NCBI GenBank assembly: GCA_030913385.1
Contig: CP133159.1
Location: 3,246,584 to 3,310,583, forward strand
Direction of reading: 5' to 3'
Origin: Cytophagaceae bacterium ABcell3
Lineage (GTDB): Bacteria > Bacteroidota > Bacteroidia > Cytophagales > Cytophagaceae
Length of the DNA stretch: 64,000 nt
In this document: piece after piece, positions 9,821 to 27,800 of the stretch
Layout: each line of letters opens with the position of its first letter
Numbering within the stretch: position 1 is the stretch's first letter
Notes under the pieces: generated by a model
What the model was told of the DNA's origin: nothing
The model's input: the letters and a program-made list of their open reading frames with translations, nothing else
Databases searched by the model: none
Program-made: the position numbers and the translations under genes

Positions 9821-12394
9821 ATGAAAAAAGTCCTTTTTTGTCGCGTTGGATGGTGTAAATATTATGACGATATAAAAGATAAAGGAAAAAGGCCCATAGG
9901 TGGAGGAAGTTATAATAAAGATGAGGTAGGTCATGAGGTTTATAGTTTTAAACCTGAGAAGGGTATCTTATTCGGTTATGTACAACCTTCAATGCAATCA
10001 TTTTCCAGACGTGAACTAAATCTTGAAAGAATATCTGTAAACTTAAATGATAAAAACCTAATAGAAGATGTACTTGTAATATTCTTTGCTACTTCAATAA
10101 GGCAAGGTGCACAGGTAGTTGTTGGTTGGTATAAAGACGCTAGTGTTTACAGAAAATACCAAAAACCCAAAAATCAAAACAACAGAAATGGTTTTACATA
10201 TAATTTAGTTACTTCTGAAGAAAATGGGGTTTTACTGAACGGTTATGACAGAAAATGGAAGATATCTGATCCACAAAGTAAACAAGGAAGACCCGGTACA
10301 AGCAATGTCTTTTATGTCCTGAATGAAAAAGGAGAACCAAGAAAGGGAGCCTGGATTAATGAAATTCTTGAAAAAATAGAAAACTTCTCCGGCGACAATC
10401 TTTTGCATGGAGGAGAATATTCTGAAGAAAAATATGACGAACCTGCCAAAACCAACCTTAAAGATACGTATAGGTTTGAAGGAGAATTTTCAGAAAAAGA
10501 TGCCCATAACATTGCCGGCAAAAACGAGTCTACGGTTTTATCAAAAAATCGCTCTTTGCTTTATGCCGTTGGTGATGACGCCAGAAAACTTACAAATTCA
10601 GATCTTTTTCCTGAGGCTGTTTCCTGTCTCTTGAAAAATCCTAAATTGAAGGAGGTTCACCTTCTTTCTTTTGTTACCAATAAAACGTTTTTTGAGCAAG
10701 CAGGACTTACTTCATTTATAAAATCAAATCCTGGAAAACTTAAAGTGCTTCTGGCTCCTCCTGCCGGAACGGACCATCTTTTTGCTGTGGAACTGTATAA
10801 ATTTATGGCTGAAGGATTACTTCAGCTTAAACAAGTAGGCAAGGTTGAATATAGTTGTGGTCTTATGCATAATAAGCTATACAACTTTGTGCTTGCTGAT
10901 GAAAACTACCTCACAATAACCGGCTCCGCCAATGCCACAGGTGCAGGCATAAACCGGAACATGGAATATTCCGTTGCTTTTACAGGAATTATGGATTCCG
11001 AAAAGCTTGCACCGGTCAACTATTTCAATGATTTGTGGGAAAAAAGCGAAGAATTTAATCCTTTAGATTTTTGTGCTATTCCTGAAGGATTTGTTACTCC
11101 GCAGACTACCTCTAAAACGCTTTTTAAATATCAGAAAGCGGTTCATAAGAATTTGAATGAAACTTTTCTTCCTGTTTTGCAGGGATATTCTTATCCCAAA
11201 ACCGGTGCTTTTCTGGTGATGCCCACAGGTTCTGGTAAGACATTTACTATGGTAAAATGGCTTTTTGACCAATTTCTAAAGGAAAAGCATACTACTGCGA
11301 GGGTGCTCTGGCTTTCTCACCGTACGGAACTGCTTGAACAGGCAACTCGTGAAATTGAATCCGTAAAATGGAATTCTGAAATAAAAGTAGAGGTGAATCC
11401 TGTTTTCCATAACCATTATTTTGGTGAGGAATATTTTAACAAAGGATTTATTATATGCTCTTGTCATAAAGCCTCCGGGAAATATTTTGATATTCTGAAG
11501 GCATTAAAGTTTGACCTGATCATTGTAGATGAAAGTCATCGCGCATCTGGTGAAACCGAAATGTACGGAACCATCCTCAGGAAGCTTGAATACAAAGCGC
11601 TTATTGGTCTTTCCGCCACGCCTTACAGAGGGGGAGGTGTGGAACAGGAAACGCTGGCAACCCACTTCCATTTAGATAAAAGCCAAAAGAATATACAGCC
11701 TTCTGTGGTTGCTTCTGTTACGCTTGAAGATGTTAAAAAAGAAAACCCAAAGATTTTCTCTGAACCGGAGTTTGTTTATGTAGATACCCAAGCCGAAACC
11801 ATTCTGGGTGAAGATTTTTCAGATTACCTGGATAAGCTAAAGAGCCGTCAGGAAAGAAACAGCTTTATTCTTGAATCTTACATAAACCTAAAAAAGGAAA
11901 AGAACTTCCGCTCAGCCTTATTTTTCTGTATTGATTGTGAACATGCCAATCAAATTGCAGAAATGCTCAACGAATGCGGACAAAAGGCTCAGGTTTTTCA
12001 CATGGGCAAAATCACCAGGGAGGGCTGCCAGCCGGACGTTACCGGAGATTCAATCTCTGATTTCGACCGTTTCCGCATCATTCAGGACTTCCGAACCGGA
12101 AAGATTGAGTGCCTGGTTACTGTAGGCCTCTTAACAGAAGGTTTTGACGTGCCTAACATAGATGCCATTTTCCTTACCCGACCAACTTTCAGTACTGTTC
12201 TCATGACCCAGATGATAGGCCGCGGTCTTCGTGGACCTGCCGTAGGCGGTTCTGAAAAGTGCCTCATTGTAGACTTTCACGACAAGGTAAAATACCACCA
12301 GATAAACCATGAGCTGCAAATTAAGAGGGCAACGAGGGAACTGGTTTTTGAGGAAGTGCAGGAAGAGGATGTCGTGGATGTGTATGGGGATTAA
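9821..12394 (+). CDS. PLD-type nuclease fused to SF2 (DEAD/DEAH, ResIII-like) helicase
   Basis: 857 residues with three parts. Residues 1-210 form an unrecognised domain with GGGSYN...GHEVYSF...GYV. Residues about 240-420 form a phospholipase D-like nuclease domain (HNK near 347, then GSANATG). From about 440 there is an SF2 helicase: Walker A MPTGSGKT near 467, DESH box near 570, SATPYRGG, then TEGFDVPNIDAIF and QMIGRGLRGP (motifs V/VI). The architecture suggests a DNA-translocating, DNA-cutting defence enzyme, perhaps of the type III or IV restriction style, with the N-terminal domain possibly recognising a DNA feature; that part is inference. It stands alone, 200 bases before ietA and on the same strand. 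Confidence 0.8.
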   Translation: MKKVLFCRVGWCKYYDDIKDKGKRPIGGGSYNKDEVGHEVYSFKPEKGILFGYVQPSMQSFSRRELNLERISVNLNDKNLIEDVLVIFFATSIRQGAQVVVGWYKDASVYRKYQKPKNQNNRNGFTYNLVTSEENGVLLNGYDRKWKISDPQSKQGRPGTSNVFYVLNEKGEPRKGAWINEILEKIENFSGDNLLHGGEYSEEKYDEPAKTNLKDTYRFEGEFSEKDAHNIAGKNESTVLSKNRSLLYAVGDDARKLTNSDLFPEAVSCLLKNPKLKEVHLLSFVTNKTFFEQAGLTSFIKSNPGKLKVLLAPPAGTDHLFAVELYKFMAEGLLQLKQVGKVEYSCGLMHNKLYNFVLADENYLTITGSANATGAGINRNMEYSVAFTGIMDSEKLAPVNYFNDLWEKSEEFNPLDFCAIPEGFVTPQTTSKTLFKYQKAVHKNLNETFLPVLQGYSYPKTGAFLVMPTGSGKTFTMVKWLFDQFLKEKHTTARVLWLSHRTELLEQATREIESVKWNSEIKVEVNPVFHNHYFGEEYFNKGFIICSCHKASGKYFDILKALKFDLIIVDESHRASGETEMYGTILRKLEYKALIGLSATPYRGGGVEQETLATHFHLDKSQKNIQPSVVASVTLEDVKKENPKIFSEPEFVYVDTQAETILGEDFSDYLDKLKSRQERNSFILESYINLKKEKNFRSALFFCIDCEHANQIAEMLNECGQKAQVFHMGKITREGCQPDVTGDSISDFDRFRIIQDFRTGKIECLVTVGLLTEGFDVPNIDAIFLTRPTFSTVLMTQMIGRGLRGPAVGGSEKCLIVDFHDKVKYHQINHELQIKRATRELVFEEVQEEDVVDVYGD

Positions 12395-12411
12395 CCAAAC
12401 TTTGGTTTATA

Positions 12412-12514
12412 GGGTGGGTAGAAAAAAAATTTGTAAAGCTATATCATTGCTTTGCAGATCAGTGAATTGTAATTTTTTTTTACTCCAAAGGTTGGTAGAA
12501 GGGTGGGTAGAAAA
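12412..12514 (+). repeat. two direct copies of a G-rich 14-mer upstream of ietA
   Basis: GGGTGGGTAGAAAA occurs at 12412-12425 and 12501-12514, each preceded by a TTGGT-containing word. The copies lie 80-185 bases before the ietA start and could be a regulator site or a simple duplication. Confidence 0.35.
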
Positions 12515-12595
12515 GTCTTTATTTTTGTTAATGTTTAACGTATCTTTACCCAAAGAAACTTTGCAGTTTCATTAAAAGTTATAAAGTAAAAGTTA

Positions 12596-13576
12596 ATGGC
12601 AGCCGCAGATCAGATAAAAAGCCTTATTAAATCCTTTGGAGAAGGGGATGAATCAAGATTTTTTGCTACTGCAATGCAAATCGCGGCCTCCGAAGCAAGA
12701 CAAGGGCATACTACCTTTGCTCAGGAACTAAAAAACCTTATTGAAAAAGCTAAAAAGGAACGTTCCTTATCTTTCCTTGACAACGGAAAGACCATTCCTA
12801 TTTCCAGGCCTAAACGGGAACTCAATGAGCTAATTGAAATTTTTAATCCCAAAATCAGGCTTGCTGATATGGTATTGGATAAGCAGGTGAGGGATTCATT
12901 AAACAGGGTTGTTGTAGAATACCGGAAAACAGACCTGCTTAGACAACATAACCTAAGTCCCAGACGGAAACTTTTACTGACAGGCCTGCCGGGCTGTGGA
13001 AAGACGATGACGGCTCAGGCTTTGGCCGGTGAACTTGGTCTTCCGGTTTTTATTATCAGGTTGGATGGCTTAATCTCCAAATTTATGGGAGAGTCCATTG
13101 CAAAGCTTAGAATGATTTTTGAAGCAATGGAAGAACACCGGGGTGTTTACTTGTTTGATGAATTTGATTCTATTGGTTCACACAGGGATCAGGGACAGGA
13201 TGTTGGTGAAATCAAAAGAGTACTCAATAGTTTTCTGATAAATATTGAGAAAGACCAAAGCAACAGTATTGTTATTGCTGCTACTAATTTACCCGACTCT
13301 CTGGATAAGGCACTCTTCAGGAGGTTTGATGATATTATTTCTTATCCTTTACCTAACAAGGACGATATCAAAGCTCTGTTGAAAAAACATCTTTCGGGCT
13401 TTACCTTATCAGAAAAAAGTGCGCTTGATAAGGTGAGTAAAGAAGCTCAGGGGTTAAGTTATTCAGATATTGTAAGGGCTTGCGAAGAGGCTATCAAGGA
13501 GATGATAATTTTAGATGAAGACAGTATTTCAGTCGAGTCCTTGCTGACTTTGTTGAAGAAGCGTAAAAGTTTTTAG
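12596..13576 (+). CDS. ietA: AAA+ ATPase, IetA-like subunit of an IetAS defence pair
   Basis: A 326-residue AAA+ protein. The N-terminal about 100 residues are helical. Walker A is GLPGCGKT near 131, Walker B is YLFDEFDSI near 187, sensor 1 is IAATNLPD, and the arginine finger is in LFRRFDD. The C-terminal lid ends in KKRKSF. The stop is three bases before the start of a subtilase gene. An AAA+ ATPase directly followed by an S8 peptidase is the arrangement of IetAS, first described as a plasmid stability/incompatibility pair in Agrobacterium and later shown to give phage resistance. The ATPase is thought to control or deliver substrates to the protease. The pairing is clear; the IetA name rests on architecture and size. 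Confidence 0.75.
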   Translation: MAAADQIKSLIKSFGEGDESRFFATAMQIAASEARQGHTTFAQELKNLIEKAKKERSLSFLDNGKTIPISRPKRELNELIEIFNPKIRLADMVLDKQVRDSLNRVVVEYRKTDLLRQHNLSPRRKLLLTGLPGCGKTMTAQALAGELGLPVFIIRLDGLISKFMGESIAKLRMIFEAMEEHRGVYLFDEFDSIGSHRDQGQDVGEIKRVLNSFLINIEKDQSNSIVIAATNLPDSLDKALFRRFDDIISYPLPNKDDIKALLKKHLSGFTLSEKSALDKVSKEAQGLSYSDIVRACEEAIKEMIILDEDSISVESLLTLLKKRKSF

Positions 13577-13579
13577 TAA

Positions 13580-16081
13580 ATGCCCCCTAAACCTACCTTC
13601 CGGCATATAAAAATAGATGGCTATTATCAGGTAGATGATTATAAAAGCCCTAAAATGGGCAATTCGCCTCCGGTTAAAGTTCATACCAACAGACGGTCGC
13701 ATGGAAATAAGTTGCTTCGGCATCTGAATATAATACAGCAACAATTTGAAGCACTAAAAGGTGGTCCGCTCGCTGAAGGTATAGTTCAGGATGATGCTAT
13801 TTATGTTGAATTTGTTTCTGAGCTTAACTTTGAACCAGCTTTTAATAGTTTTGAAAGCAATGCTGCTCAACCTAAATACCGGCTACTCTCGATTAAAAAG
13901 GAAAAACATGGCGAAGACATAAGGTATCGTACCAATGTGATGCTTACAGAAGGTGGTATTAGTCATTTTTATAAAAAAATTAATGAATATATCTCTGAAA
14001 ATGTTGAGCGCAACGGGGAGCAAACAGAAACGCCGAAGAACAACAAACTGGTAAGTAATATTGAAGCCATTAAGCTCGCTACTTTAGAGGCTTTTTGGAT
14101 GGAACCAGACAAAGTTCCTTTTCCGGAGAAAGATGAAATTGTCTGGTGGGAAGTATGGTTTCGGAAAAAAGCAGGAGACACGGCTCAGGAAGCTGACAAA
14201 GAAAAGATTACCCGTCAGCTTAGGTCAATCGGGGCAGAGGTGGCAAGTCATGAAATCAACTTTCCGGAGCACTTTGTGAAACTTGTAAAAGCCACCGCTC
14301 AACAATTATACAATTCTGTTTACTTGTTAGACAATCTTGCGGAACTAAGAAAGCCAAAGGAAACGGCTGACTTTTTTCAAAACCTAAATTATTCTGAACG
14401 GGAAAGTGCTGTTCAGGAGCTGTTAAGTCGGGTAAGAAGTCATGTAAATGAAGAAAGTGTTGCCGTTTGTATTTTGGATACCGGCATTCAGAGACTGCAT
14501 CCTTTATTGAAAGATTTTCTTAGCGAAGATGCTTTATACAGCTACAACTATGATTGGGGTATCCATGATAGTATAGGCCATGGGACTGGTATGGCCGGTC
14601 TTGTTCTTTACGGGGATCTGACCGAAGCTCTGGCTGCTAATAACAGCATCGATATTTATCATTGTATAGAATCTTATAAGCTTATCAATCACCAGATTCC
14701 GCATAAGCCTGAATTATATGGTGCCGTTACAATTGAAGCCGTAAATACTCCTGTTATCAATGCTCCGGAACGACCACGTATTTTCTGCATGGCTGTTACT
14801 GATAAAGATGAAGCCTTATATGGTCGGCCATCTTCCTGGTCTGCCGCTTTAGATAGTATTGTCTTTGGAAATGAGGGCTCAGACCAACAGTTGTTTTTTG
14901 TTTCTGCCGGGAATGTTCATATACAAAAGGCTGAGGATTATACTGATAAAAATGTTTATGAATCTGTTCATGATCCGGCTCAGGCTTTCAATGCAATTAC
15001 AGTCGGCGCCTATACAGAAATGGACTGCTTTGACTCTGAAGAATTTCCGGGAACCCAACTTTTAGCCCCTAAAGGAGGAATGGGAGCATCAAACTCTTCT
15101 TCTATAATCTGGGAAAATGACTGGCCCATTAAACCTGAAGTGGTTATGGAAGGAGGTAATTTACTTAAGCAGGATGATGACATTATAACTGCGCATTCAC
15201 TTCGTTTGCTCACCACTAATAATAACTCCTTAAATACGCCTTTTCAAACTTTCGGTGACACCAGTGGTGCTACGGCGCTGGCATCAAACTTTGCAGCTTT
15301 ATTAAAAAATCAATATCCTGATCTTTGGCCTGAAACAATAAGGGGTTTAATGGTTCATTCAGCTGACTGGACGCCACAGATGCTTCAGGGAAGAACGCTC
15401 AAAGAATTTTCTACGCTTCCGGTTATTGAAAAACGTAACCTGCTGAGATCATTTGGCTATGGAGTTCCTGATTTAGACAAAGCTTTATACAGCGCTGGTA
15501 GTTCCCTTACTTTAATTGCTGAGCGTACTTTAAAACCTTTTAGAAAACAAGGTTCTGACATCAAATACGATGAAGTTCACTTTTTTGAGTTTCCCTGGCC
15601 GGTGGATGTGCTTCAGGATTATCTGACTGACGCAGATGTTAAACTCAATGTTACCTTATCATATTATATTGAGCCAAATCCTGGAAGCCGAACCTACAGT
15701 AATAATTTTAGTTACAGATCACATGGTTTACGGTTTAATGTTATTAAACCAGGAGAAGATAAAGATACATTCCTAAAAAGAATCAATAAGAATGCACGGG
15801 AGGAAGGGGAAAAGGGATTTACATCGGAAGACTGGATTATAAAGGAACAAAGCAGGAATAGTGGTTCTATCCACCGTGATTTCTGGATTGGCTCTGGTGC
15901 TGATTTATCAACCAGAAACTGTATAGCTGTTTATCCTGTCTCAGGTTGGTACAAAACACGCAAAAAACTTCAGAAATACGATACTGCTGTAAGATATAGT
16001 CTGATTGTAACCATAGAGGCTCCTGAAGTTGATGTTGATATTTATACTCCTGTGGCTAATACAGTTGCTATTACCACATAA
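13580..16081 (+). CDS. ietS: S8 subtilisin-like serine peptidase, IetS-like subunit
   Basis: An 833-residue protein without a signal peptide, so cytoplasmic. The first 290 residues are an N-terminal domain unlike a standard subtilisin propeptide. The catalytic triad is visible: Asp in CILDTGIQ (about 300), His in GHGTGMAGLV (about 334) and Ser in GDTSGATALASNFAALL (about 563). The oxyanion Asn is in FVSAGN. The C-terminal 200 residues form a beta-rich accessory domain. It is translationally coupled to the AAA+ gene. In known IetAS pairs both genes are needed for defence, presumably with the protease acting on host or phage proteins when triggered; that last step is inference. Confidence 0.75.
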   Translation: MPPKPTFRHIKIDGYYQVDDYKSPKMGNSPPVKVHTNRRSHGNKLLRHLNIIQQQFEALKGGPLAEGIVQDDAIYVEFVSELNFEPAFNSFESNAAQPKYRLLSIKKEKHGEDIRYRTNVMLTEGGISHFYKKINEYISENVERNGEQTETPKNNKLVSNIEAIKLATLEAFWMEPDKVPFPEKDEIVWWEVWFRKKAGDTAQEADKEKITRQLRSIGAEVASHEINFPEHFVKLVKATAQQLYNSVYLLDNLAELRKPKETADFFQNLNYSERESAVQELLSRVRSHVNEESVAVCILDTGIQRLHPLLKDFLSEDALYSYNYDWGIHDSIGHGTGMAGLVLYGDLTEALAANNSIDIYHCIESYKLINHQIPHKPELYGAVTIEAVNTPVINAPERPRIFCMAVTDKDEALYGRPSSWSAALDSIVFGNEGSDQQLFFVSAGNVHIQKAEDYTDKNVYESVHDPAQAFNAITVGAYTEMDCFDSEEFPGTQLLAPKGGMGASNSSSIIWENDWPIKPEVVMEGGNLLKQDDDIITAHSLRLLTTNNNSLNTPFQTFGDTSGATALASNFAALLKNQYPDLWPETIRGLMVHSADWTPQMLQGRTLKEFSTLPVIEKRNLLRSFGYGVPDLDKALYSAGSSLTLIAERTLKPFRKQGSDIKYDEVHFFEFPWPVDVLQDYLTDADVKLNVTLSYYIEPNPGSRTYSNNFSYRSHGLRFNVIKPGEDKDTFLKRINKNAREEGEKGFTSEDWIIKEQSRNSGSIHRDFWIGSGADLSTRNCIAVYPVSGWYKTRKKLQKYDTAVRYSLIVTIEAPEVDVDIYTPVANTVAITT

Positions 16082-16097
16082 AAGGAACTGTCTTTAT

Positions 16098-16424
16098 TTA
16101 ATCCATCTCCTCCATACAAATCTTAATCACATAATCCAAAAGATCTGCAACACCTTCTTGCTCTAATCTTTCATCTACAGATTCAAGGATACCTTTTAGA
16201 TCCTCTTTAGTAGAAGACTCAGCTTTACTTATCAGTTCTGAAAGAATCAATTTTATAGCATTAATTCCTTCAGTTGTTGGTTCGGGAACCATATTCTCAC
16301 CGTAAAAATCTGAATATGCAATACGACCGGCACCACCATACTTAACACAATCAAAAGCAAAACAGGAAAGTCCTTCGTATCTTAAAGCATAATTTGGATC
16401 ATCATAAAATTGTATATATGCCAT
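16098..16424 (-). CDS. small acidic protein of unknown function
   Basis: 108 residues, convergent with ietS (16 bases between stops). The N-terminal third has aromatic strands (AYIQFYDDPNYALRYEGLS) and cysteines, including CFAFDC. The C-terminal half is a highly acidic helical region ending in ICMEEMD. No family was recognised. The size, acidity and position beside a protease-based defence pair would fit a small inhibitor or accessory protein, but nothing in the sequence proves that. It lies on the same strand as the reverse transcriptase and downstream of it. Confidence 0.55.
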   Translation of the reverse strand: MAYIQFYDDPNYALRYEGLSCFAFDCVKYGGAGRIAYSDFYGENMVPEPTTEGINAIKLILSELISKAESSTKEDLKGILESVDERLEQEGVADLLDYVIKICMEEMD

Positions 16425-16459
16425 ATTTAAATATAATAGAAAAATAGTATTACTACCTT

Positions 16460-16615
16460 TTAGTATTCAGTTTTATTGATTAGCTCTTTCAATTTCTGCC
16501 AGCTTCCAATAGTAAAAGCATCAAACTCCGCTTTACTTAATACGGTACAGGAAGCTAAAAAGGAGTGTAGGGTATAGTTTCTATAAATGCTTTTTAGCTT
16601 ATAAGCTTTTTGGAT
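16460..16615 (-). other. in-frame open continuation beyond the reverse transcriptase stop
   Basis: Reading past the TAA of the RT gene in the same frame gives 51 further codons without a stop, including FLASCTVLSKAEFDAF and WQKLKELINKTEY. It may be a lost C-terminal extension, a separate short frame, or chance in AT-rich DNA. Confidence 0.2.
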
Positions 16616-18154
16616 TTAAAGAGAAGCATTTATCAAACCATGAAATACCTTCCAGTGCCTTCTGATTTGAGATTTTATTTTGTTATCAGGTATATTATTA
16701 GCCGCTTTAATGGCATATCTTAAGTAATTCCCCCAGTCGTCTTTTTTGGTTTTCTGCCATTTATTTGTTGTGCCTGGAACCCTTTTGTAAATTTTCCTTC
16801 TTTTTGCTCCTAAGAAAGTAAATCTCTTGTATAGCCTTGATTTAAAAAGTTCTCCATTTGTGGAGTTGTTAATTCTACTTGAATAATACTTCCCTCTTCT
16901 TACGCTCCTTTTCATCTTCCGGTAAAAGCTTGCCAGGCTGGCTGACTTTAAATATGTGTAATGCCCGTCAAAGGAAAAACCTAAATAGTCAAACATGGTG
17001 TTTGTGAGAAGTTTTTTAGTACAGGCGTTTTTTTCATAACACATATACCTGCCGCCCTTCTTTATGAAATGAAAAATTTGTGTTTTATTACAGTTTACTT
17101 CTAATTCAACCTCTTTTATTAGCTTCTCTACAAAAGAAATAATTTGCTGCTCATAGGCAGGTTCGCAAACAACTACAATATCATCTGAATATCTTCTATA
17201 TAATCCTCCAATACCTGAAATGAAATCAGAAACTGCTTTGTCAAACTCATAAAGGTAGATGTTAGCAAGAACAGCACTAATAGGAGAGCCCTGCGGAATG
17301 CCTTTTTTCCTAAGCACTTTGTTCCCATTTTCATCTGTTATATACCTATCCTTTTTATCCTTTTCATATTTATTGCTTTTGATATAGTTTTTCTCTCTAA
17401 GAATATCTATTTCTTTGGATTGGCAAAAAGCAACAGCCTTATTCTCTTTAAGGTATTTACGCTTGTTGACTTTTTTTCTCTTTATGTTATTGGCAGCGTC
17501 CTTTACTATAATGCTCGACTTGAATTCATTAAATATTTCTCTTTCATATACATATGAAAATTTAGTGATGTTGCGGAAAACGTTGTAATGATCACAAGGT
17601 AAGTCGGTGCCGGATTTAATAACCTCTCTCCAGGCTACCTTCAATTTTTTGTGGCTCAGATTGTCAAAAAAGCTACAAATGTCAAAGGCAATGGCAATAA
17701 GCTCTTGCTTGCCACTATTCTTTATATACTGGAATACTTCACTTGCAAAATCAATATTGCACTTATTCCCAGCCTTTAGATTATCAGGGTCTTTAGGGAT
17801 TTTTCTGTAAGCTGTTACGCATTCTTTAATTCCTGCATCGCTCAGATAGCTCTCATAACTTTCCTGAATTAAGGAGGAATAGTATCCGTATATACAAGCA
17901 TCAATGTGGTTGGCGTAATATATTGGACGGGTTTTATCTCCGGAAACTCTAAGCTCTGAACGGGAGCCATCCTGAAATTTTTCTTTTCGGAACTTTCTAA
18001 CCGTTATGGGATTAAAAATGAAAGGAGAGAAGCTATGTTGGGAAACTCTTTTTTTATCCTTCACAAGTTTTTCTACCCACGGCCTGTCTGCATGGGTGAG
18101 GGGCTCACCAATATGCGGATAGCCTTTTATTTTAAACCAGTCTTTTTTAATCAT
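16616..18154 (-). CDS. defence-associated reverse transcriptase, resembles DRT2 (UG2)
   Basis: A 512-residue RT. The catalytic YSDD lies near 320 (YRRYSDDIVVVC), preceded by GIPQGSPISAVLANIYLYEFD (about 285-305) and AIAFDICSFFDNLSH with the first catalytic Asp. The N-terminal phrases (KGYPHIGEPL; VSQHSFSPFI; KTRPIYYANHIDACIYGYY; CNIDFASEVFQYI) match my memory of the DRT2 family rather than retrons or group II intron proteins. There is no maturase or HNH extension. In DRT2 the RT copies an upstream non-coding RNA into concatemeric cDNA that encodes a repetitive toxic protein during phage infection. The RNA should therefore lie just above 18154. The subtype call should be confirmed by HMM. Confidence 0.75.
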   Translation of the reverse strand: MIKKDWFKIKGYPHIGEPLTHADRPWVEKLVKDKKRVSQHSFSPFIFNPITVRKFRKEKFQDGSRSELRVSGDKTRPIYYANHIDACIYGYYSSLIQESYESYLSDAGIKECVTAYRKIPKDPDNLKAGNKCNIDFASEVFQYIKNSGKQELIAIAFDICSFFDNLSHKKLKVAWREVIKSGTDLPCDHYNVFRNITKFSYVYEREIFNEFKSSIIVKDAANNIKRKKVNKRKYLKENKAVAFCQSKEIDILREKNYIKSNKYEKDKKDRYITDENGNKVLRKKGIPQGSPISAVLANIYLYEFDKAVSDFISGIGGLYRRYSDDIVVVCEPAYEQQIISFVEKLIKEVELEVNCNKTQIFHFIKKGGRYMCYEKNACTKKLLTNTMFDYLGFSFDGHYTYLKSASLASFYRKMKRSVRRGKYYSSRINNSTNGELFKSRLYKRFTFLGAKRRKIYKRVPGTTNKWQKTKKDDWGNYLRYAIKAANNIPDNKIKSQIRRHWKVFHGLINASL

Positions 18155-18472
18155 AATAAAAAAGTGAGAAAAGTAGCTGTCGGAGCAACCTTGACCGGCA
18201 CATGCTAAACCAATAAGCTAAAGCTTATCGCCCCTCTTTGTGGAAATATTCTTCATAACTTTAAACATAATAATAAACTTTATCATGAAAGCAATCAGAA
18301 CCAGAACATTCACTATTAGATATATATTACTAACAGCAATTCAACAGGCATTCTCTCTTTATCTGGGAGAAACTTGTTTTCTTGAAATGTCCAACCTTAT
18401 CAACGTATGTCTTGATAAGCAACTCAGAAAAAAACGTAACCAATCGGTATTACAACTACCTTCTCACATAGC
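18155..18472 (-). ncRNA. candidate template RNA of the DRT2-like reverse transcriptase
   Basis: About 480 bases separate the RT start from the divergent hsdM start, far more than two promoters need. On the RT strand this region has strong stems: CTTATCAA (18396-18403) with TTGATAAG (18412-18419), and ATAAGCT (18213-18219) with AGCTTAT (18222-18228). A 117-base stretch (18449 down to 18333) has no stop in one minus-strand frame, roughly the 40-codon size I recall for the DRT2 repeat-encoded protein. Exact ends cannot be set from sequence. This is a positional inference from the RT type. Confidence 0.3.
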
Positions 18473-18605
18473 TTAAAATTAGACATTAAATTGTCTTTTA
18501 CCAATGTTAGTTCATTATTATTTACTTATAATTTATTGTTAGAAAGCACATTGTAACAATTGTTACCTTTCCCTTCCATTTCCGTCTCTTAATGTCTAAT
18601 TTTAA
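18473..18605. repeat. 133-bp element bounded by perfect 17-bp inverted repeats
   Basis: TTAAAATTAGACATTAA at 18473-18489 is the exact reverse complement of 18589-18605. The 99 bases between are AT-rich and contain the palindrome at 18553-18566. It sits 30 bases before the hsdM start. It could be a miniature inverted-repeat element, an operator pair or a long hairpin. No clear target duplication flanks it. Confidence 0.55.
18553..18566. promoter_or_regulatory. 14-bp perfect palindrome, possible operator of the hsd operon
   Basis: GTAACAATTGTTAC is fully self-complementary and lies 70 bases before the hsdM ATG, a plausible place for a dimeric repressor. No regulator gene for it was identified. 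Confidence 0.3.
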
Positions 18606-18635
18606 AATCCTTTAGAATTAAGAATTTTTCCCTAT

Positions 18636-21038
18636 ATGACCCAAAAAGTTACCCTTTCCAGACTTGAAAATTTACTTAAAGATGCCTGTGACATCCTGCG
18701 GGGAAATATGGATGCCTCTGAATTTAAGGAGCATATATTTGGTATGCTGTTCCTGAAAAGGCTCAGCGACAAGTTTGATGAAGACCGTGCAAGGCTGAAG
18801 GAGGAATATACCCAAAAAGGACTTTCTGAGGATTTGATTGCCCGGCAGCTGGAAAATCCGGCCAAATATGACTTCTATGTTCCGGAGCGGGCACGGTGGG
18901 CAAATATCCGCCACCTGAAAAAAGATGTGGGCTCGGCCCTCAACAAGGCACTCACCGAACTGGAGGAGGCCAATACCAGCACCTTACAGGATGTGCTTAA
19001 AAGCATTAACTATAACAAAAAGGTAGGACAAAAGGCCATCAGTGATGAAAAACTGGTGGAGTTTATCCAGCACTTTGAATTGATTCCCCTGCGCAACGAG
19101 GATTTTGAGTTTCCTGACCTCATGGGGGCTGCTTACGAATACCTTATCAAGTACTTTGCCGACAGTGCGGGCAAAAAAGGCGGGGAGTTCTATACACCTA
19201 CCGAGGTGGTAAACCTGCTTACGACGCTGATTGAGCCACAGGAGGGCATGAGCATCTATGACCCTACCGTTGGTTCCGGAGGTATGCTTATACAGTCATG
19301 GGATTATGTGGCGCGGACGGGTGGCAACATCCGCGACCTGTCGCTGTACGGACAGGAAAGCAACGGTACCACCTGGTCTCTGTGCCGTATGAACATGCTC
19401 CTGCATGGCATTTACTCTGCCGACATCCGGCATGAGGATACGCTGAAGGAACCGCAGCACCTGGAGGCAAATGGCGAACTGAAGCGTTTTGACAGGGTGA
19501 TTGCCAATCCGCCCTTTTCGCAGAACTACAGCCTCAAAGAGCTGAAGTTCAAAGACCGTTTCCGGGTATTTATGCCCGACAATGGTAAAAAGGCCGATTT
19601 TATGTTTGTGCAGCACATGGTTTCCGTGCTGAAGGCCAATGGCCGGATGGCGGTGATTATGCCGCACGGGGTGCTGTTCCGTGGCGGACAGGAAAAAGAG
19701 GCGCGGCAGTACCTGCTACAGGAGGGTTTGCTGGAAGCGGTAATAGGCCTGCCACCGGGACTGTTTTACGGTACGGGCATTCCGGCTTCTGTGCTGTTGA
19801 TAAACAAGGAAGGTGCCGCACAGCGGAAAGAGGTGCTGTTTGTCAATGCCGACCGGGAGTACAAAGAAGGCAAAAACCAGAACAAGCTGCGGCCGGAGGA
19901 CATTGCCAAAATCAGCTATGTGTACCGCCATAAACTACCGGTGGAAAAATACGCGCGGCTGGTAAGTCTGGAGGAAATAGAGAAGGAGGAGTACAACCTG
20001 AACATACGCCGCTATGTGGACAATGCCCCAGAACCGGAGCCGCACGACGTGACGGCACATCTCTATGGTGGCATTCCGGAGGCGGAAGTGGAGGCGCTGG
20101 ACTTTTATTTCAGGAATTTTGACGGCGTGAGGGCGCTCCTGTTCCGGCCATATAAAAAGGATTACCTGCAATTTACCGGAGCCGTAACAGGCAAAGAGAA
20201 TATCAGGGAACTGCTGGAAAACAGCGGGGAGATAAACAAAAAGCTGCAGGACTACCGCGACATCATTGCCGCCTGGTGGGAGAAAAACCTGCCGGAGCTC
20301 AGGGGCATGGACAGCAAGAAGAAGGTTTATGAACTCTACAACCGCTTTACCGACGACATTACCAAGGCCCTTTTGCCGCTCAGTCTGCTTGACCAGTTCA
20401 GGCTGCGGGGTGCTTTTGCTTCTTTCTGGAACCACGACATTATCCTCAGTGACCTGAAATCTGTGGCTGCCAGCGGATGGGGTGCTGCCCTGATTCCTGA
20501 GGAGGAAATCCTGCAGTCTCAGTTTCCCGAACTGCTGGAAAAACATGAAACCAACATGAACCGCATTGCCGAACTGGAAGCTTTGTTTGCCGAGGCAGAA
20601 GGGGAAGATTATGACTATGAGGAAAGCGAGAGCGGCGTGCTTTCTAAGAAAGATTTGAAAAACCTGAAGGACAAACTGAAAAAAGACAAGAACAACAAAA
20701 AACTACAGGAACAGATAGAAAAGCACGAAGCCCTTGCAAAAGAGCTGAAACATCTGAAAACAGAGGTAAAAGCCCTTGACAAACGCAAAGCCGAACTGGT
20801 GGAAGTGGCAAGGCAGAAAATCTCTAAAGAGGAGGCCGAGGAACTGATACTTGCCCGCTGGAAAAACACCTTGCTGGATACCTTTGACGGATATCTGAAA
20901 CAACACGTGCAGGCCTTTGTAGCGGCGGTGGAAAACCTGTACGGCAAGTACAGCATTACCCTGAAGCAGCTGGAAACAGAACGGGATGAGGAAAAAGCAA
21001 TGTTGGACAAGTTTTTAATGGAGTTGGGGTATGAGTAG
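18636..21038 (+). CDS. hsdM: type I restriction-modification DNA methyltransferase subunit HsdM
   Basis: An 800-residue N6-adenine methyltransferase. HsdM N-terminal helices (1-130, [21 protein letters not shown]) are followed by the catalytic domain with the AdoMet motif [10 protein letters not shown] near 208 and the catalytic NPPF near 290. From about 440 there is a long extension, partly coiled coil and very charged ([16 protein letters not shown] region). It is longer than the roughly 500 residues of classic HsdM, as is seen in some Bacteroidota versions. It pairs with HsdS to methylate the recognition site and with HsdR to cut. The stop overlaps the hsdS start by eight bases. The coding sequence is distinctly GC-richer than the flanking RT and HEPN genes. 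Confidence 0.95.
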
Positions 21039-22335
21039 AAAAGTTAAATTATTTGAAGTAGCAGATATTTTCCCAAGCAATGTTGATAAGGTAATACATA
21101 AAGAGGAATTACCTGTGAAGCTTTGTAATTACATGGATGTATACAACAATAGATATATTCATTCCAGAATAATTTTCTCTGATGGCTCTGTTAATGCATC
21201 TGAACTTGTAAAATTTCAACTCATCAAGAATGACGTTTTAATAACAAAAGATTCTGAAACTCCTGATGACATTGCGGTACCTTCAGTAATAACTGAGGAT
21301 ATTGATAATTTAGTTTGTGGTTATCATTTAGCTTTAATAAGGCCATTTAATTGTCATGGGGAGTTCTTAATGCACTACCTGCTGCTTGATGATATAAAAA
21401 AGCAATTCAGCAATAAAGCAAACGGAAGTACCCGCTATGGTTTAACTTTAGATTCAATAAGAAATATTTCTTTAAATCTTCCCCCTCTCCCCATACAGCG
21501 GAAGATAGCGCAGATACTGAGTACGGTTGACGGGCAGATAGAGAAAACAGAAGCGATAATAGAGAAATATAAAGCCATAAAACAAGGCCTTTTGCAGGAC
21601 TTGTTTACCCGTGGCATAGATGTCAACACCGGCAAACTCCGCCCCGCCTACAAAGACGCCCCGCATTTGTATAAGGATTCTCCCCTGGGCATGGTGCCGA
21701 AGGAGTGGGAGGTGGTGAGGTTGGAGAAGGTTTTAGAAAAAGTTGGTAGTGGTAAAACTCCTTTAGGAGGAAGTGAAGTTTACCAAGAAAGTGGTGTTTT
21801 GTTTATTAGGAGTCAGAATGTTCTTGTCAATGAGTTATCATTAGAAGATGTAGCATTTATTTCTGAAGCAATAGACACTAATATGGCAAGTACAAGAGTA
21901 AAACCATATGATGTTTTGCTTAATATTACCGGTGCATCAATAGGTAGAGCAACATATTTTCCATTAGATTTAAAAGTGGCAAATGTAAATCAGCATGTTT
22001 GTATACTAAGGCCATTTTATCCATCCTTTGAATTGGCTTTATTTTTAAGTGAATACTTAAATGATTATCAAGGTCAGTCACAAATTTTCAAACTAATTGC
22101 AGGAGGAAACCGGGAAGGGTTGAATTTTCAACAAATTAAGGCGATGCATTTCATTGTTCCCAAACACGAAGAAATGATATTAATTATTAATAGAATGACT
22201 GCTCTGAACAAGCTGCTAAAATCTGAACTTTCAACTTTGACGAAACTTTTGCATGTGAAACAAGGCCTCATGTCCGATTTATTAAGCGGTAGGAAAGAGG
22301 TAAAAGTGGAAGGAAAATTAGAAGTGAAAATATAG
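21031..22335 (+). CDS. hsdS: type I restriction-modification specificity subunit HsdS
   Basis: 434 residues with the two-target-recognition-domain layout. TRD1 covers about 1-150. A central conserved helical repeat follows ([18 protein letters not shown], then [20 protein letters not shown], about 150-205). TRD2 starts after a short [12 protein letters not shown] link, from about 228 ([22 protein letters not shown]), and the second conserved helix region ends in [15 protein letters not shown]. The TRDs read the two halves of the split DNA target. The conserved centre is GC-rich while both TRDs are AT-rich, a visible mosaic that points to TRD exchange. It starts inside the hsdM end. Confidence 0.93.
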
Positions 22336-22340
22336 TTCAT

Positions 22341-23018
22341 ATGGCCAAAACCATAAAAGTTTTTTGGAATGAGAACCTTGAAGGGTACATTCGGGCGGAA
22401 GAAATAAAAGGACAATACTGTAAAGTTTACCCATTATTAAGTCCTATTGCAAAAAGTTATTCAGGATACAGGTTAATTCTAAAAGATTTAGAGGTTGTTA
22501 AAAAGGTTCTAGCTGAGTTGAGAGGTTTAAAAATGGTTGAGACATCATCAATTGTTAAACAAAGCTTATCTTTTTACGCTGTTATAACTTATGGAAAATG
22601 TTTCTCGGAAGCAAAAGGAAGAGGTTGTCAATTAAATAAAAAAGATGCGTTAAAGTATTGTTCTTTAGAAATTAAAGAAGAACATGATTTAATAATTGAC
22701 CAAAGAAATAAATATGTAGCTCATGGAGAATTAAAAGGTTATGAACAAAATCCAGTTGTTGCATATTTAAGTCCTGATTTAAATAATAAAAAAATTATTA
22801 AAATCCAAGATAATCTAATGAGTTTAGTTGATATTGAATCTCAATTATCAAACTTTGATATACTAATAGAGTGTGTTATTCAATATGTAAAAGAAAAATG
22901 TGATAAAGTAGGCAATAAGTTAAGAGAAGAACTTTTAAAAGAAAGTTTAGAAGTAATTTATAATAACTCAATAACTGTTTCTTCAGATGACCTTATAGAA
23001 GTTAAGGTATCTCAATAA
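22341..23018 (+). CDS. HEPN-like protein inserted in the type I R-M operon
   Basis: 225 residues, five bases after hsdS. Mostly helical, with the motif RNKYVAH (about 122-128) inside DQRNKYVAHGE. This is an R-x5-H signature of the kind found in HEPN domains, many of which are RNases used in abortive infection or toxin-antitoxin pairs. AbiU2-like HEPN proteins carry the same RN-x-x-x-AH phrase. Whether it is an active RNase cannot be told. It is strongly AT-rich compared with hsdM and hsdR and is followed by a 110-base gap before the next gene. Placement suggests a back-up effector that fires if R-M fails; that is inference. Confidence 0.55.
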   Translation: MAKTIKVFWNENLEGYIRAEEIKGQYCKVYPLLSPIAKSYSGYRLILKDLEVVKKVLAELRGLKMVETSSIVKQSLSFYAVITYGKCFSEAKGRGCQLNKKDALKYCSLEIKEEHDLIIDQRNKYVAHGELKGYEQNPVVAYLSPDLNNKKIIKIQDNLMSLVDIESQLSNFDILIECVIQYVKEKCDKVGNKLREELLKESLEVIYNNSITVSSDDLIEVKVSQ

Positions 23019-23128
23019 AGCATTTGTTTATATTGCACGCTTATATTTAGAACTGTTTTAACTGTTTATTCTTAAGTTGAAACCAATTTATTTTATTAAT
23101 TTATAATTCCCAATCTCTGATTAATATT

Positions 23129-24892
23129 ATGGCACAAACAATTGAAAGCGATAAACTTTTTGTAAAAGACGTTTTTAACAGATGGTATAGAATTCCTGAA
23201 TATCAAAGGCCTTATGTATGGGGCGCTGACCAAGTAAGTGAGTTACTTGAAGACATAAGTCAAGCGTGTAGCACTAACCCTGAATCTCAATATTTTTTAG
23301 GCTCAATGGTTCTTAAACGGTCTAATATTACCGAAGGAAATACAAGGTATGAAGAATATGACCTGCTTGATGGACAACAAAGATTAACAACATTATTCTT
23401 ATTAACAGCGGTAATAAGGGATTTAACAAATAATACTGGGAGAATTAAAACTTGTGGAGAAACAATTTTCCAGAGGGCTAATCCTGATGACAATGTTCCG
23501 GAAAGAATTAGAATTGTTTTTGATATTAGAAATAAAGTAAAAGAATTTGTTGATGATTTTATTAAAACCGATGGAGGTACAGCAAAAGTGCAAGAACTTG
23601 CATTATTAGCTAATAAAAAAGATGAAGATATTTCCATTAGGAATATGGCAAAGGCTATTTTGAAAATCAGGGAATATTTTTCTTCACAACATCTAATAGA
23701 TGATTTTTTTCCATACCTACGAAGTAACGTACTAATGATATACGTTGCTGCAGAGGAGCTGGAAGATGCATTTCGGTTATTTACGGTAATGAATAACAGA
23801 GGAATAAAGTTACGTAATAGTGATATTCTTAAGGCAGAAAATTTATCACAAGTGAGTGATAAAAGCAAAAGAAGGAATGCAGCCATACAATGGGAGTGTA
23901 TAGAAGAATATTTCGGGGAAGATTTTGATAATTTTTTATCTCACCTTCGTACTATGTTGGTAAAGCAAAAGGCTGCGTATAGCTTATTAAAAGAATTTGA
24001 AGATAATATTTATTTCCCAAGGGAGTATGACCGAATTACAAAAACTTACCATCCCAAGGCACCTTTATTGACCAAAGGGGAAAATACGTTTAAGTTTATC
24101 AACACGCACTTCAAGAACTATCAGGAAATATTTGACAAAGATAATTATGAACTAACCAACAGTTTTGAATTTTACAATCATATTCAATTGATGAGAAAAG
24201 GGTTTGAAGCTGATTTTTGGATTGCTCCATTATTAAGATATTTTGAAAAATTCAGGAATACAGGGCTTGTTGAGTTTACAAAAGCTTTAGAGATAAAGTT
24301 TGCGGCTGATTGGTTAACAGGTCTTACGCCAACCCACAGGATAGAAAATATAAATAGTATTATCCAGAAGATTGATGTTTGTAAAGAATATCAGGAAGTC
24401 TTAGGCTCTTCTGAGATGTCATTTAGTACACAAAACTTTATTAAAGAAATTGCACATGATATATATGGCAGAAGAGCTGCTAGATATATTCTTCTTAAAA
24501 TTGATTTATTATTCCATGGCCATACCACAAAGTTTGACCCACCAGGAACAACAAGTGTTGAGCATATTTTACCTCAAAATCCAACGGACGGGTCGGAATG
24601 GAAAAGTTTATATTCAGAAAGTGAGCATCAGTATTGGAAAGATAAAGCGGGCAATTTAATATTAATATCAAGAAGGAAAAATGCTGCGCAAAGCAATAAA
24701 GATTTCAATGACAAAAAAGAAAGGTATTTCAAGAGTAATATAGAGCTTTTTAGTAATTCAATTAGAGTTATGAATGATTTTCATACTTGGAGATTGGTTG
24801 ATTTAAAACATAATCATATGATTGTTGTGAGAAAACTGGCTCAAGGATTTAATATTACTATTTCAGAGGATGAACTATTAGAATTAACCTAA
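23129..24892 (+). CDS. DUF262/DUF1524 (GmrSD-like) nuclease protein inside the R-M operon
   Basis: 587 residues. N-terminal DUF262 (ParB/sulfiredoxin-like NTP-hydrolysing domain) has IPEYQRPYVWG (about 18-28) and LLDGQQRLTTLF (about 75-88). C-terminal DUF1524, an HNH-type nuclease, has SVEHILPQNP near 477 and the downstream Asn/Asp-rich element GNLILISRRKNAAQSN. This single-chain layout matches type IV GmrSD-like enzymes that cut modified phage DNA. It ends exactly one base before the hsdR ATG, so the two are coupled. It is AT-rich like the HEPN gene, suggesting both entered the hsd operon together. The modified-DNA preference is family knowledge, not visible here. Confidence 0.85.
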   Translation: MAQTIESDKLFVKDVFNRWYRIPEYQRPYVWGADQVSELLEDISQACSTNPESQYFLGSMVLKRSNITEGNTRYEEYDLLDGQQRLTTLFLLTAVIRDLTNNTGRIKTCGETIFQRANPDDNVPERIRIVFDIRNKVKEFVDDFIKTDGGTAKVQELALLANKKDEDISIRNMAKAILKIREYFSSQHLIDDFFPYLRSNVLMIYVAAEELEDAFRLFTVMNNRGIKLRNSDILKAENLSQVSDKSKRRNAAIQWECIEEYFGEDFDNFLSHLRTMLVKQKAAYSLLKEFEDNIYFPREYDRITKTYHPKAPLLTKGENTFKFINTHFKNYQEIFDKDNYELTNSFEFYNHIQLMRKGFEADFWIAPLLRYFEKFRNTGLVEFTKALEIKFAADWLTGLTPTHRIENINSIIQKIDVCKEYQEVLGSSEMSFSTQNFIKEIAHDIYGRRAARYILLKIDLLFHGHTTKFDPPGTTSVEHILPQNPTDGSEWKSLYSESEHQYWKDKAGNLILISRRKNAAQSNKDFNDKKERYFKSNIELFSNSIRVMNDFHTWRLVDLKHNHMIVVRKLAQGFNITISEDELLELT

Positions 24893-27800
24893 ATGTCCGA
24901 ATACCTCCACATAGAACAACCCTTCCTTCAGCAGCTCAAAAACCTGGGCTGGCATACCATAGACCAGGGCAAAGGCATTCCCTGCGACCCGGGTAAAAGC
25001 TGCAGGTATTCTTTCAGGGAGGTGCTTCTTAAAGACATTTTTACGCAGGCTGTCCGGAAAATCAACCAAACCGAATCGGGTGCGGAATGGCTTACGGACA
25101 AACAACTGGAGGATATCCATGACGAGCTGATGGGGCATAAGCTAAAAAGCCTGCTGGAAGCCAACAAGGAGGTATTTGAGCTTATTACCAAAAACACCCG
25201 TACAGATAAAAATGAACTGACGGGAGAGGAGTACCCGGTTGTAAAAATTATAGATTTTGACAATCCCTCAACAAACCATTTTCTGGCCATCAACCAGTTC
25301 CGCATAGACACACCCGGTACGGGCAAAGGCTTCATTATTCTGGACATTGTACTGTTTGTGAACGGCCTGCCGCTTGTGGTGGTGGAATGTAAAGAGCAGA
25401 ATGCTTTTACCAGCAATCCGCTGCATGAGGCCATAGAGCAGATACTGCGCTATAGTAATCAGCGGGAGGGCACACATGCCGATGGCCTGAAAGAAGGGGA
25501 TGAGCGCTTGTTCTGGTTTAACCAGTTTTCCGTGGCTACCCACGGGGAGGTGGCACAGTACGGCACCATTACTTCCAGTGAAAACTATTATTTTGAATGG
25601 AAAGACATTTATCCTGAAACATACAAAGCATACCTGCCGCCTTTGGGAAAAGCCCGTTCGCAGGAGGTGCTGGTTCAGGGTATGCTGCCGCCGGAAACGC
25701 TTCTGGACATTGTCCGGCATTTTACCCTCTACATGCGCACCAACGACCGGGAGATTAAAATCATTTCCAGATATCAGCAGTACAGGGCTGTTGGTAAAAT
25801 TGTGGAAAGGCTGCTGACAGGCAAAACACCTTTGGAGCGCTCAGGCGTTGTCTGGCATACACAGGGCTCCGGCAAGAGCCTTACCATGGTGATGCTGGTC
25901 AGGAAACTCCGCACTACAGAAGCGCTGAAGGATTATAAAATCCTTATGGTAAACGACCGCACCGACCTGGAGGGACAGCTTGGTGCAACCGCAGAACTTA
26001 CCGAAGAGAAAGTGGACTATGTACATTCTACCACAGAACTGAAACATAAACTGGCCACCCCGTCCTCCAATCTGGTCATGGTGATGATACATAAGTTTCA
26101 GGAAAAAGTACAGACCGACGATACCGAAGTCGGGCAGGCGCTGGCACAGGCCGCAGAGCCGCTGGTAACCTACAACAGGTTTGGCAAGGTCAATCCTTCT
26201 GAAAAGATACTCATACTGATAGATGAGGCCCACCGCACACAAAGCAGCGACCTGGGCGACAACCTCTTTGAGGCCTTTCCGAACTCCACGAAAATCGCCT
26301 TTACCGGTACGCCGCTGATTACCGACAGGCATAAGAAAAAGACTCATGACCGCTTTGGCACTTATATAGACAAATACAAACTCAAAGACGCCGTAGATGA
26401 CGGAGCCACCCTGCAGATTCTCTATGAAGGCAAAACCTCGGATGATGCCGTAAGGGACAAACACGAAATGGAGGTAAAGTTTGAGGATTTGGTAAAAGAC
26501 CATACCAAAGAAGAGCGGGAAGCAATCACCAAACGGTACGGAACTTATGGCGATGTACTGGAAGCAGAGGAAAGAATAGCCGCCATAGCCAGAGATTTGG
26601 TAAACCATTACATAGACAACATCCTCTTAGACGGTTTTAAAGCTCAGGTAGTAGCCAGTTCGGTGCTTGCTGCCGTACGCTACAAAAAAGCCATAGAAAA
26701 GGCCCTTGCAGAGCGGATAGAAACAGAACGGAAACGCAAAAATCCGGATGAGGAGCTGATAAGGAAAATAGAATTCCTGAAGGTTGAGGTGGTCGTTTCC
26801 TCACAGGGAACCAACGAAGCGGCCATTATTACAGAAGCACGGAAGTCCGCCCAGAGAAATAATGCTGTAGATAATTTCAAAGACAAATTTGACTATGAGA
26901 AACCGCTTACCGGCATAGCTTTTCTGGTGGTTTGCGATATGCTGCTCACAGGATTTGACGCGCCCATTGAGCAAATCATGTACCTGGATAAGAAAATGAA
27001 GGAGCACAACCTGCTGCAGGCCATTGCACGGGTAAACAGAACCGCCTCCGGCAAGTCAAGGGGCTTTGTGGTGGACTATATTGGCAATACCAACAACCTC
27101 AAAGAAGCTCTTTCCATTTACAGTTCAGACGACCTTGAGGATATTCTGGATTCCTTTAAACGTACAGATACGGAAATTCCCATTCTGGAGCAAAGGTTTA
27201 ACCGCCTCATACAGCTCTTTAAGGAAAAAGGCGTGAAGCGCATAAAAGACTATGTGGAGCAGGCAACAGAAGACACAGCCGAACGGCAGGATATCCTGGA
27301 AGCGTGCATAGAACTAGCCGCAGATGTGAAATTCCGTGCCGATTTTGATGTTTTTTTCAAGAGCTTTATGGAAAGCATGAACATCGTGCTGCCCAATGCC
27401 GCAGCCAATCCCTTTAAAATTCCGGCCAAGCAGTTTGGATATATACTTTTAAAAATCAGAAACCGCTACAAGGACAATTCCATTTCCATAGAAGGGGCAG
27501 GGGAGAAAATAAAGCGGCTTATCAACGAGCATGTGGTGAACCTCGGCATCAATCCGAAAATTCCGCCGGTAGAGCTTTTCTCAGAAAGTTTTGAGGAAGA
27601 AGTTTCCAAAAACATTTCCCCCAAAGCCATTGCCTCCGAAATGGAGCATGCCATCCGTAAGCACATCAAAGTGAACTTTGAAGAAGACCCGGCGCTGTTT
27701 ACCAAACTGCACGAAAAACTTGAAGCCATCATACAGCAGTACAAAGACGACTGGGAGCGACTGGTAAAAGAATTCAAGGGCCTGACCAGCGAAGCCCTTG

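What the first reader, a model, noticed from the sequence alone, without database searches (positions are those of the whole stretch)
18155..18635. Candidate DRT2-type template RNA upstream of the reverse transcriptase
The RT resembles DRT2, whose activity depends on a structured RNA encoded just upstream that is copied in a rolling manner. The 480-base gap here has strong stems on the RT strand and a 117-base stop-free stretch (18449 to 18333). If correct, this would be a Bacteroidota version with a new repeat-encoded protein.
Basis: partly seen in the sequence, partly recalled or inferred. Interest (0 to 1): 0.55.

Follow-up and report, generated by a model that had tools for sequence, protein, structure and literature searches.

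The report
DRT2 template RNA hiding repeat gene
The gap beside this bacterial antiviral reverse transcriptase very likely encodes a structured RNA that is copied into tandem DNA repeats, and the joints between repeats would create both a promoter of the kind this bacterial phylum uses and an endless protein frame that the genome does not carry in readable order.

Summary
The gap holds a DRT2-type template RNA. The RT (16616-18154, -) matches DRT2 far better than other RT groups, and two RNA helices covary across 27 loci. The predicted template is 18248-18388 (141 nt), read on +. Joining its ends at a 5-nt microhomology rebuilds TTG-N20-TAACTTTA, a Bacteroidota-type promoter, then ATG 18285 and a stop-free 47-aa repeat. 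A frame-blind rule on 29 loci found such a joint in 23; in 20 the length is 3n and the frame endless (shuffles: 3 open of 1740; random real windows: 36 of 9052). Spacing 20 is the clear peak of 8-30. Against: three joints are not 3n and six loci have none; no codon-position bias; no experiment. It works like Klebsiella DRT2/Neo with different jump sites and promoter grammar: a new variant of a known kind, in a family where Neo annotation of divergent clades was reported as difficult (PMC11100668).

The parts
16616..18154 (-). DRT2-type reverse transcriptase, 512 aa, with YSDD catalytic motif
   Evidence: PADLOC Drt2 1.4e-133; NCBIfam Drt2 361 bits, cut-off 390; Klebsiella DRT2 in the PDB, 9c0i, 9.1e-52
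18164..18469 (-). predicted ncRNA, about 306 nt; ends inferred from the promoter box and the terminal helix, not measured
   Evidence: motifs shared with relatives, covarying helices, left-out model hit
18474..18505 (-). predicted promoter of the ncRNA, ATTG-N20-TAATTTTA
   Evidence: by the same search L055 also has N20, L045 N17 and L015 N22, the other 23 of 27 loci have none
18453..18467 (-). H1, 5' strand of the terminal helix (partner 18164-18179)
   Evidence: own-partner energy -22.9 against -14.3 with other loci's partners; own better than the mean of the others in 27 of 27
18164..18179 (-). H1, 3' strand
18434..18447 (-). H2, 5' strand (N6-N-TACGT; partner 18193-18203)
   Evidence: own -10.8 against -4.9, 27 of 27; eight positions with three or four Watson-Crick pair types
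18193..18203 (-). H2, 3' strand (ATGTG-N6)
18396..18420 (-). H3, hairpin of the 5' handle just before the template
   Evidence: predicted fold of the window and of relatives
18230..18234 (-). H4, 5' strand GGGGC (partner 18182-18186), crossing H2: candidate pseudoknot
   Evidence: pairing score own 4.69 against 4.05 cross, own at or above the row mean in 26 of 27; strands picked by pattern, weaker evidence
18182..18186 (-). H4, 3' strand GCTCC
18211..18229 (-). H5, scaffold hairpin
   Evidence: predicted fold
18248..18388 (+). predicted template = neo repeat unit in neo sense, 141 nt (47 codons); the exact joint is ambiguous within the 5-nt microhomology
18384..18388 (+). microhomology GAAAT, copy inside the template
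18243..18247 (+). microhomology GAAAT, copy outside the template
18374..18376 (+). -33-like TTG; lies 20 nt before the -7 box only after the repeat joint forms
18256..18263 (+). -7-like TAACTTTA (consensus TAnnTTTG)
18285..18287 (+). predicted neo start codon, 21 nt after the -7 box, A at -3, the only in-frame ATG of the repeat

Best explanation
18155-18505 encodes the promoter and the ncRNA of a divergent Bacteroidota DRT2 system. The RT binds the pseudoknotted RNA and copies its 141-nt template. At the template's 5' end the nascent cDNA jumps back through a 5-nt microhomology (GAAAT), giving head-to-tail cDNA. Once double-stranded, each joint rebuilds a Bacteroidota primary-sigma promoter (TTG-N20-TAACTTTA). 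Its transcript, antisense to the ncRNA, starts translation at ATG 18285 and meets no stop: a repetitive, hydrophobic Neo-like protein (47 aa per repeat) that would arrest the infected cell. Shown here by computation: RT family, RNA covariation, joint promoter, 3n length and endless frame across relatives. Inferred from Klebsiella DRT2: RNA binding, jumping, second strand, phage trigger, growth arrest.
For: RT: PADLOC Drt2 1.4e-133, next group RT_UG17 8e-23; Klebsiella DRT2 structures. RNA: H1 and H2 covary in 27 loci; a model without the window finds it. Joint: of 29 loci, 23 have TTG-N20-TAnnTTT[GA] across a joint with at least 3 nt of microhomology, and the longest-microhomology joint is 3n and endless in 20; shuffles 130 joints, 3 open, of 1740; random real windows 861 joints, 36 open, of 9052, and the ncRNA strand of the same 29 regions 1 joint, 0 open. 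Motifs and spacing were noted before L060-L086 were fetched; of the 15 later loci in the set, 12 have a joint and 10 are open. N20 is the peak of spacings 8-30. A at -3 of the ATG in 17 of 23. Hydrophobicity above shuffle in 23 of 23. The same logic with sigma-70 motifs recovers an open 111-nt unit in Photobacterium DRT2.
Against: L017, L061 and L067 have a joint that is not 3n; L015, L016, L049, L077, L079 and L086 have none by the strict rule. With hand-picked microhomologies 23 of 27 pass; L016, L017, L061 (148 nt) and L067 (139 nt) fail. No codon-position bias, pN/pS 0.84 over 13 non-independent pairs. Reverse-strand frames are often hydrophobic too. L018's best joint by the rule (141) differs from the hand-picked one (153), both open. 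Minimum microhomology, length limits, tie-break and the 290-bit cut were set, after upstream sequences and one search had been seen. The Psychrobacter control was not recovered. No bulk enrichment of TTG-N20-TAnnTTTG. The -33 box is reported as hardly evident in Flavobacterium johnsoniae (PMC6847099). A terminator-like site lies on the neo strand inside the repeat. No experiment.
Confidence: 0.8

Rival explanations
1. DRT2-type ncRNA and tandem cDNA, but no protein: the cDNA itself is the effector and the open frame is incidental.
For: No amino-acid-level selection seen; four relatives have non-3n units; the related DRT9 makes non-coding poly-dA (PMC12483538, passages).
Against: 3n and endless in 20 of 23 joints with 13 distinct lengths, 10 of them multiples of three; controls far lower; start codon and A at -3.
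Confidence: 0.11
2. The jump uses ACA trinucleotides as in Klebsiella (18388-18390 and 18239-18241 on the minus strand), with a 149-nt unit.
For: Both ACA copies are present and the joint would also put TTG 20 nt from TAACTTTA.
Against: 149 is not a multiple of three and the frame closes; ACA was not needed at the joints of the relatives.
Confidence: 0.04
3. One reading: a repeat protein coded on the RT strand, 18449-18333.
For: The 117-nt stretch is stop-free.
Against: 1347 of 2000 shuffles reach it; wrong strand relative to Klebsiella DRT2; the rule on the ncRNA strand finds 1 joint and 0 open in 29 regions.
Confidence: 0.02
4. No template RNA: an ordinary divergent promoter region with a chance antisense small ORF on the + strand.
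For: A linear + strand ORF exists, 18240-18476, and its open stretch alone is only marginal (76 of 2000 shuffles).
Against: A linear gene needs no 3n distance between a split -33 and -7; RT-strand helices covary in 27 loci.
Confidence: 0.03

Closest known systems
Klebsiella pneumoniae DRT2 / Neo (PMC12039810: main text, legends and bioinformatics section read; PMC11100668: part 1 of the results, the homolog section, part 1 of the legends, passages)
   Same: Single RT with an upstream ncRNA on the same strand; template inside the RNA; joint rebuilds a promoter; unit length 3n; endless hydrophobic frame antisense to the ncRNA; pseudoknot (a candidate one here).
   Different: Joint promoter is Bacteroidota-type with N20, not TTGACA-N17-TATAAT; microhomology GAAAT (ATTC or GGTAT types in relatives) instead of ACA; 141-nt unit against 120; RNA ends pair in a long terminal helix (not compared in detail with the Klebsiella structure); RT about 90 residues longer than the 425-aa Klebsiella RT.
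Proteobacterial DRT2 in named records (Photobacterium L088, Psychrobacter L089)
   Same: RTs annotated drt2; Photobacterium has an open 111-nt unit with a sigma-70 joint promoter.
   Different: Different branch of the RT tree; no hit of the scaffold model.
DRT9 (PMC12483538, passages)
   Same: RT with upstream ncRNA that templates repetitive DNA; a U7 run occurs in the window's 5' handle.
   Different: Drt9 profile 1.7e-13 against Drt2 1.4e-133; in the relatives listed the run is mostly three or four U.

Membership tests
DRT2 (UG2) RT | RT best matched by Drt2 profiles | tested here: met
   PADLOC Drt2 1.4e-133 and 1.8e-95, next RT_UG17 8e-23
DRT2 (UG2) RT | NCBIfam Drt2 equivalog cut-off | tested here: not met
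   361.1 bits against 390; so not filed inside NCBI's equivalog, only as a divergent DRT2-type RT
DRT2 (UG2) RT | catalytic YxDD and homology along the RT to Klebsiella DRT2 | tested here: met
   YSDD; two aligned stretches, residues 5-207 and 282-452, to 9c0i
DRT2 system | structured ncRNA directly upstream on the RT strand | tested here: met
   expression not tested
DRT2 system | pseudoknotted ncRNA | tested here: inconclusive
   H4 crosses H2; weak covariation test
DRT2 system | template of length 3n, stop-free across the joint, antisense to the ncRNA | tested here: met
   141 nt, 0 stops in four repeats; 20 of 23 joints in the clade
DRT2 system | promoter rebuilt across the joint | tested here: met
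   TTG-N20-TAACTTTA; activity not tested
Klebsiella-type DRT2 subgroup | ACA-1/ACA-2 flanking an in-frame template | tested here: not met
   ACA pair gives 149 nt, frame closes
Klebsiella-type DRT2 subgroup | sigma-70 -35/-10 rebuilt with 17-nt spacing | tested here: not met
   the TTG-N20-TAACTTTA joint has neither a TTGACA nor a TATAAT box; one weak sigma-70-like site, 9 of 12, lies outside the template
DRT2 system | phage-triggered tandem cDNA, Neo protein, growth arrest | not testable with these tools
   needs experiments
DRT9 | UG28-type RT and conserved U-rich template | tested here: not met
   Drt9 1.7e-13 against Drt2 1.4e-133; U7 run of the window not kept in the relatives listed

The most novel reading that the evidence does not exclude
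A whole Bacteroidota clade of DRT2 makes Neo by its own grammar: lineage-specific jump microhomologies (GAAAT, ATTC, GGTAT types) whose product rebuilds the phylum's unusual sigma promoter at exactly 20 nt. The cDNA-born gene is thus tuned to the host's RNA polymerase, which would explain why a pipeline built around the Klebsiella jump found Neo hard to annotate in divergent DRT2 and predicts a transcriptional barrier to transfer between phyla.
Probability: 0.75. Interest if true: 0.7.

Novelty: new variant of a known kind. Interest (0 to 1): 0.62.

Why it matters
[quoted passage not shown] Here one divergent clade gets an explicit, testable answer: the scheme looks conserved, but the jump sites and the promoter are rewritten for the host. 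The papers listed by four searches of the held open-access library include none whose title or abstract start describes a Bacteroidota Neo, and the preprint's text has no word beginning with Bacteroid; subscription journals were not covered. The joint sequence, the 141-nt period and the promoter order can each be tested directly.

Tried and rejected
Rfam at gathering threshold: no match in the window. RT-strand coding stretch: chance-level. ACA joint: frame closes. The consensus fold of a MAFFT alignment of 26 scaffolds had no pair, so model R1 is sequence-only; covariation was measured by own-versus-other duplex energies instead. R1 found nothing up to E 0.1 in 48 other loci, two of which (L049, L079) lie inside the clade. 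Codon-position selection: not found. Bulk enrichment of TTG-N20-TAnnTTTG in 388 kb of mostly coding sequence: not found. AlphaFold model of the RT: poor, pLDDT 50, so no fold search was made. One Neo unit (49 residues of the window): a single helix, best model pLDDT 86.6, the other four 64-74, single sequence, weak evidence. The rule on the 49 lower-scoring loci: 8 joints, 2 open, L022 and L087. Search of viral contigs: no relative. The 108-aa ORF 16098-16424: no plasmid match and no match in the other loci held.

Rows dropped before counts: L001 (the window itself), L002-L008 (other RTs of this genome) and L041, L042, L044, L054 (second fragments of loci already held) were left out of all sets. 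Of the remaining 78 loci, the window included, 29 with at least 290 bits form the main set and 49 the rest, L087 among them. The hand-curated 27 leave out L049 and L079, where I could not place the motifs.

Full report
What is there. The RT ORF 16616-18154 (-) starts 481 nt from the divergent hsdM gene at 18636 (+). It is DRT2-type: PADLOC Drt2 at 1.4e-133 against 8e-23 for the next group, and Klebsiella DRT2 (9c0i, 9.1e-52) leads the PDB matches. It misses the NCBIfam Drt2 cut-off (361 against 390 bits). None of the other 18 genomes of the window's own family that were searched has a match at E <= 1e-30.

The RNA. The 400 nt before 13 RTs (the window's and 12 relatives') share motifs on the RT strand, such as TACGTTT in the 5' handle and GCATGTA in the scaffold. 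Two helices covary. H1 joins the two ends of the RNA; H2 (N6-TACGT with ATGTA-N6) joins the 5' handle to the scaffold. In 27 of 27 loci the own partner pairs better than the mean of the other loci's partners, and its median rank is 0, for both helices. Eight stacked positions of H2 show three or four Watson-Crick pair types. A third helix, H4, crosses H2 and would make a pseudoknot; its support is weaker. A sequence-only model built from 26 relatives without the window finds 18253-18158 (-) at E 6e-6, its only hit up to E = 10 in 64 kb; it finds nothing up to E 0.1 in 48 other loci, of which L049 and L079 lie inside the clade.

The coding prediction. In Klebsiella DRT2 the neo frame is antisense to the ncRNA and a sigma-70 promoter is assembled across the repeat joint (PMC12039810, main text). 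Bacteroidota use another promoter, TTTG/TAnnTTTG at -33/-7 (passages of PMC7366714 and PMC6847099). On the + strand the window has TTG at 18374-18376 and TAACTTTA at 18256-18263, out of order; joining the template ends at the repeated GAAAT puts them 20 nt apart. The unit is 141 nt. ATG 18285, 21 nt after the -7 box, opens a frame without stop through four repeats. The repeat read from that ATG is MKAIRTRTFTIRYILLTAIQQAFSLYLGETCFLEIFFITLNIIINFI.

Test across relatives. The motifs and the 20-nt spacing were read from 14 loci and noted before more loci were fetched. The remaining settings (at least 3 nt of microhomology, 90-200 nt, longest microhomology wins, ATG within 50 nt, RT at least 290 bits) were set, after upstream sequences and the hand-curated one search had been seen. 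On 29 loci, choosing the joint without regard to frame, 23 had one and 20 of these were 3n and endless; the three others are L017 (148), L061 (196) and L067 (140). The 23 joints have 13 distinct lengths, 10 of them multiples of three. Dinucleotide shuffles gave 130 joints in 1740, 45 of them 3n and 3 open. Random windows of the same loci gave 861 joints in 9052, 312 of them 3n and 36 open; the ncRNA strand of the same 29 regions gave 1 joint and 0 open. Over spacings 8-30, 20 stands out (23 joints, 20 open); the next are 8 (12 open) and 14 (10 open). A at -3 of the ATG, reported as favourable in Flavobacterium (PMC6847099), occurs in 17 of 23 against 34% A overall. The same logic with sigma-70 motifs recovers an open 111-nt unit in Photobacterium DRT2 but not in the Psychrobacter one.

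What speaks against it. L015, L016, L049, L077, L079 and L086 have no joint by the strict rule. With hand-picked microhomologies L015, L077 and L086 pass, and L016, L017, L061 and L067 fail, 23 of 27. L016, L017 and L061 are one tight cluster. For three of the four failures a shift of one base opens the frame, for L061 it does not; a different or non-templated joint is conjecture. L067 and L077 have TATATTGY where the -7 box would lie, like the variant box TAnnTTGY described in Flavobacterium psychrophilum (PMC9723704, passage). Codon positions change equally often (126, 127, 130) and pN/pS is 0.84 over 13 non-independent pairs, one of them with unequal start offsets. So what is kept is the open frame, the 3n length and hydrophobicity (23 of 23 above shuffle, though reverse-strand frames are often hydrophobic too), not particular residues. 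The Klebsiella paper likewise ascribes most conserved Neo residues to nucleotide-level elements and notes a hydrophobic bias. A terminator-like site lies on the neo strand inside the repeat.

Place in the family. In a FastTree tree of 79 RTs the 20 loci that pass lie in one clade with the window (support 0.991), which also holds L015, L016, L017, L049, L061, L067, L077 and L079; L086 (Persicobacter) is just outside and the proteobacterial DRT2s L088 and L089 lie elsewhere. Of the 49 lower-scoring loci 8 have a joint and 2 are open, yet in 35 of 49 the longest open stretch is on the neo strand, so Neo with other promoter arrangements may exist there; this was not pursued.

Verdict. The best reading is a Bacteroidota DRT2 whose cDNA repeats create a host-type promoter and an endless frame: a new variant of a known kind with a sharp experimental test.

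Noticed in passing
18473-18489 and 18589-18605: Perfect 17-nt inverted repeat TTAATGTCTAATTTTAA, 99 nt apart. One arm carries the -7-like box of the ncRNA promoter, the other lies mirrored before hsdM; these are the only two exact copies in the genome. Possibly a shared regulatory site of two divergent defence units.
   Followed up: partly
9821-28138: The DRT2 locus sits in a defence island: PLD/helicase protein, IetA/IetS-like pair (12596-16081), type I restriction genes hsdM, and by position hsdS- and hsdR-like ORFs, and a GmrSD-type gene inside the type I operon.
   Followed up: no
upstream regions of 49 lower-scoring DRT2-like loci: In 35 of 49 the longest open stretch lies on the neo strand although the N20 promoter rule mostly fails; several share another scaffold motif like GTGACTCAAGAATTTGGGTAC. 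Neo with other promoter arrangements may await there.
   Followed up: no
L087 (Marivirga plasmid p1): An ncRNA whose joint is 3n and open lies before an RT that matches over only 24% of the query: an apparently orphaned template RNA, very like that of L062.
   Followed up: no
18351-18371 (+): Terminator-like stem-loop on the neo strand inside the repeat (1 found, 0.2 expected); if active it would limit neo read-through.
   Followed up: no
L018 1492-4450: An IetA-like ORF lies beside the DRT2 of L018, and hsdM-like ORFs lie beside the DRT2s of L009, L086 and L088: the same kinds of neighbour as in the window.
   Followed up: no
genome G000 outside the window (L002-L008 among them): Nine further RT matches in the same genome, some with identical scores; not classified here.
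   Followed up: no
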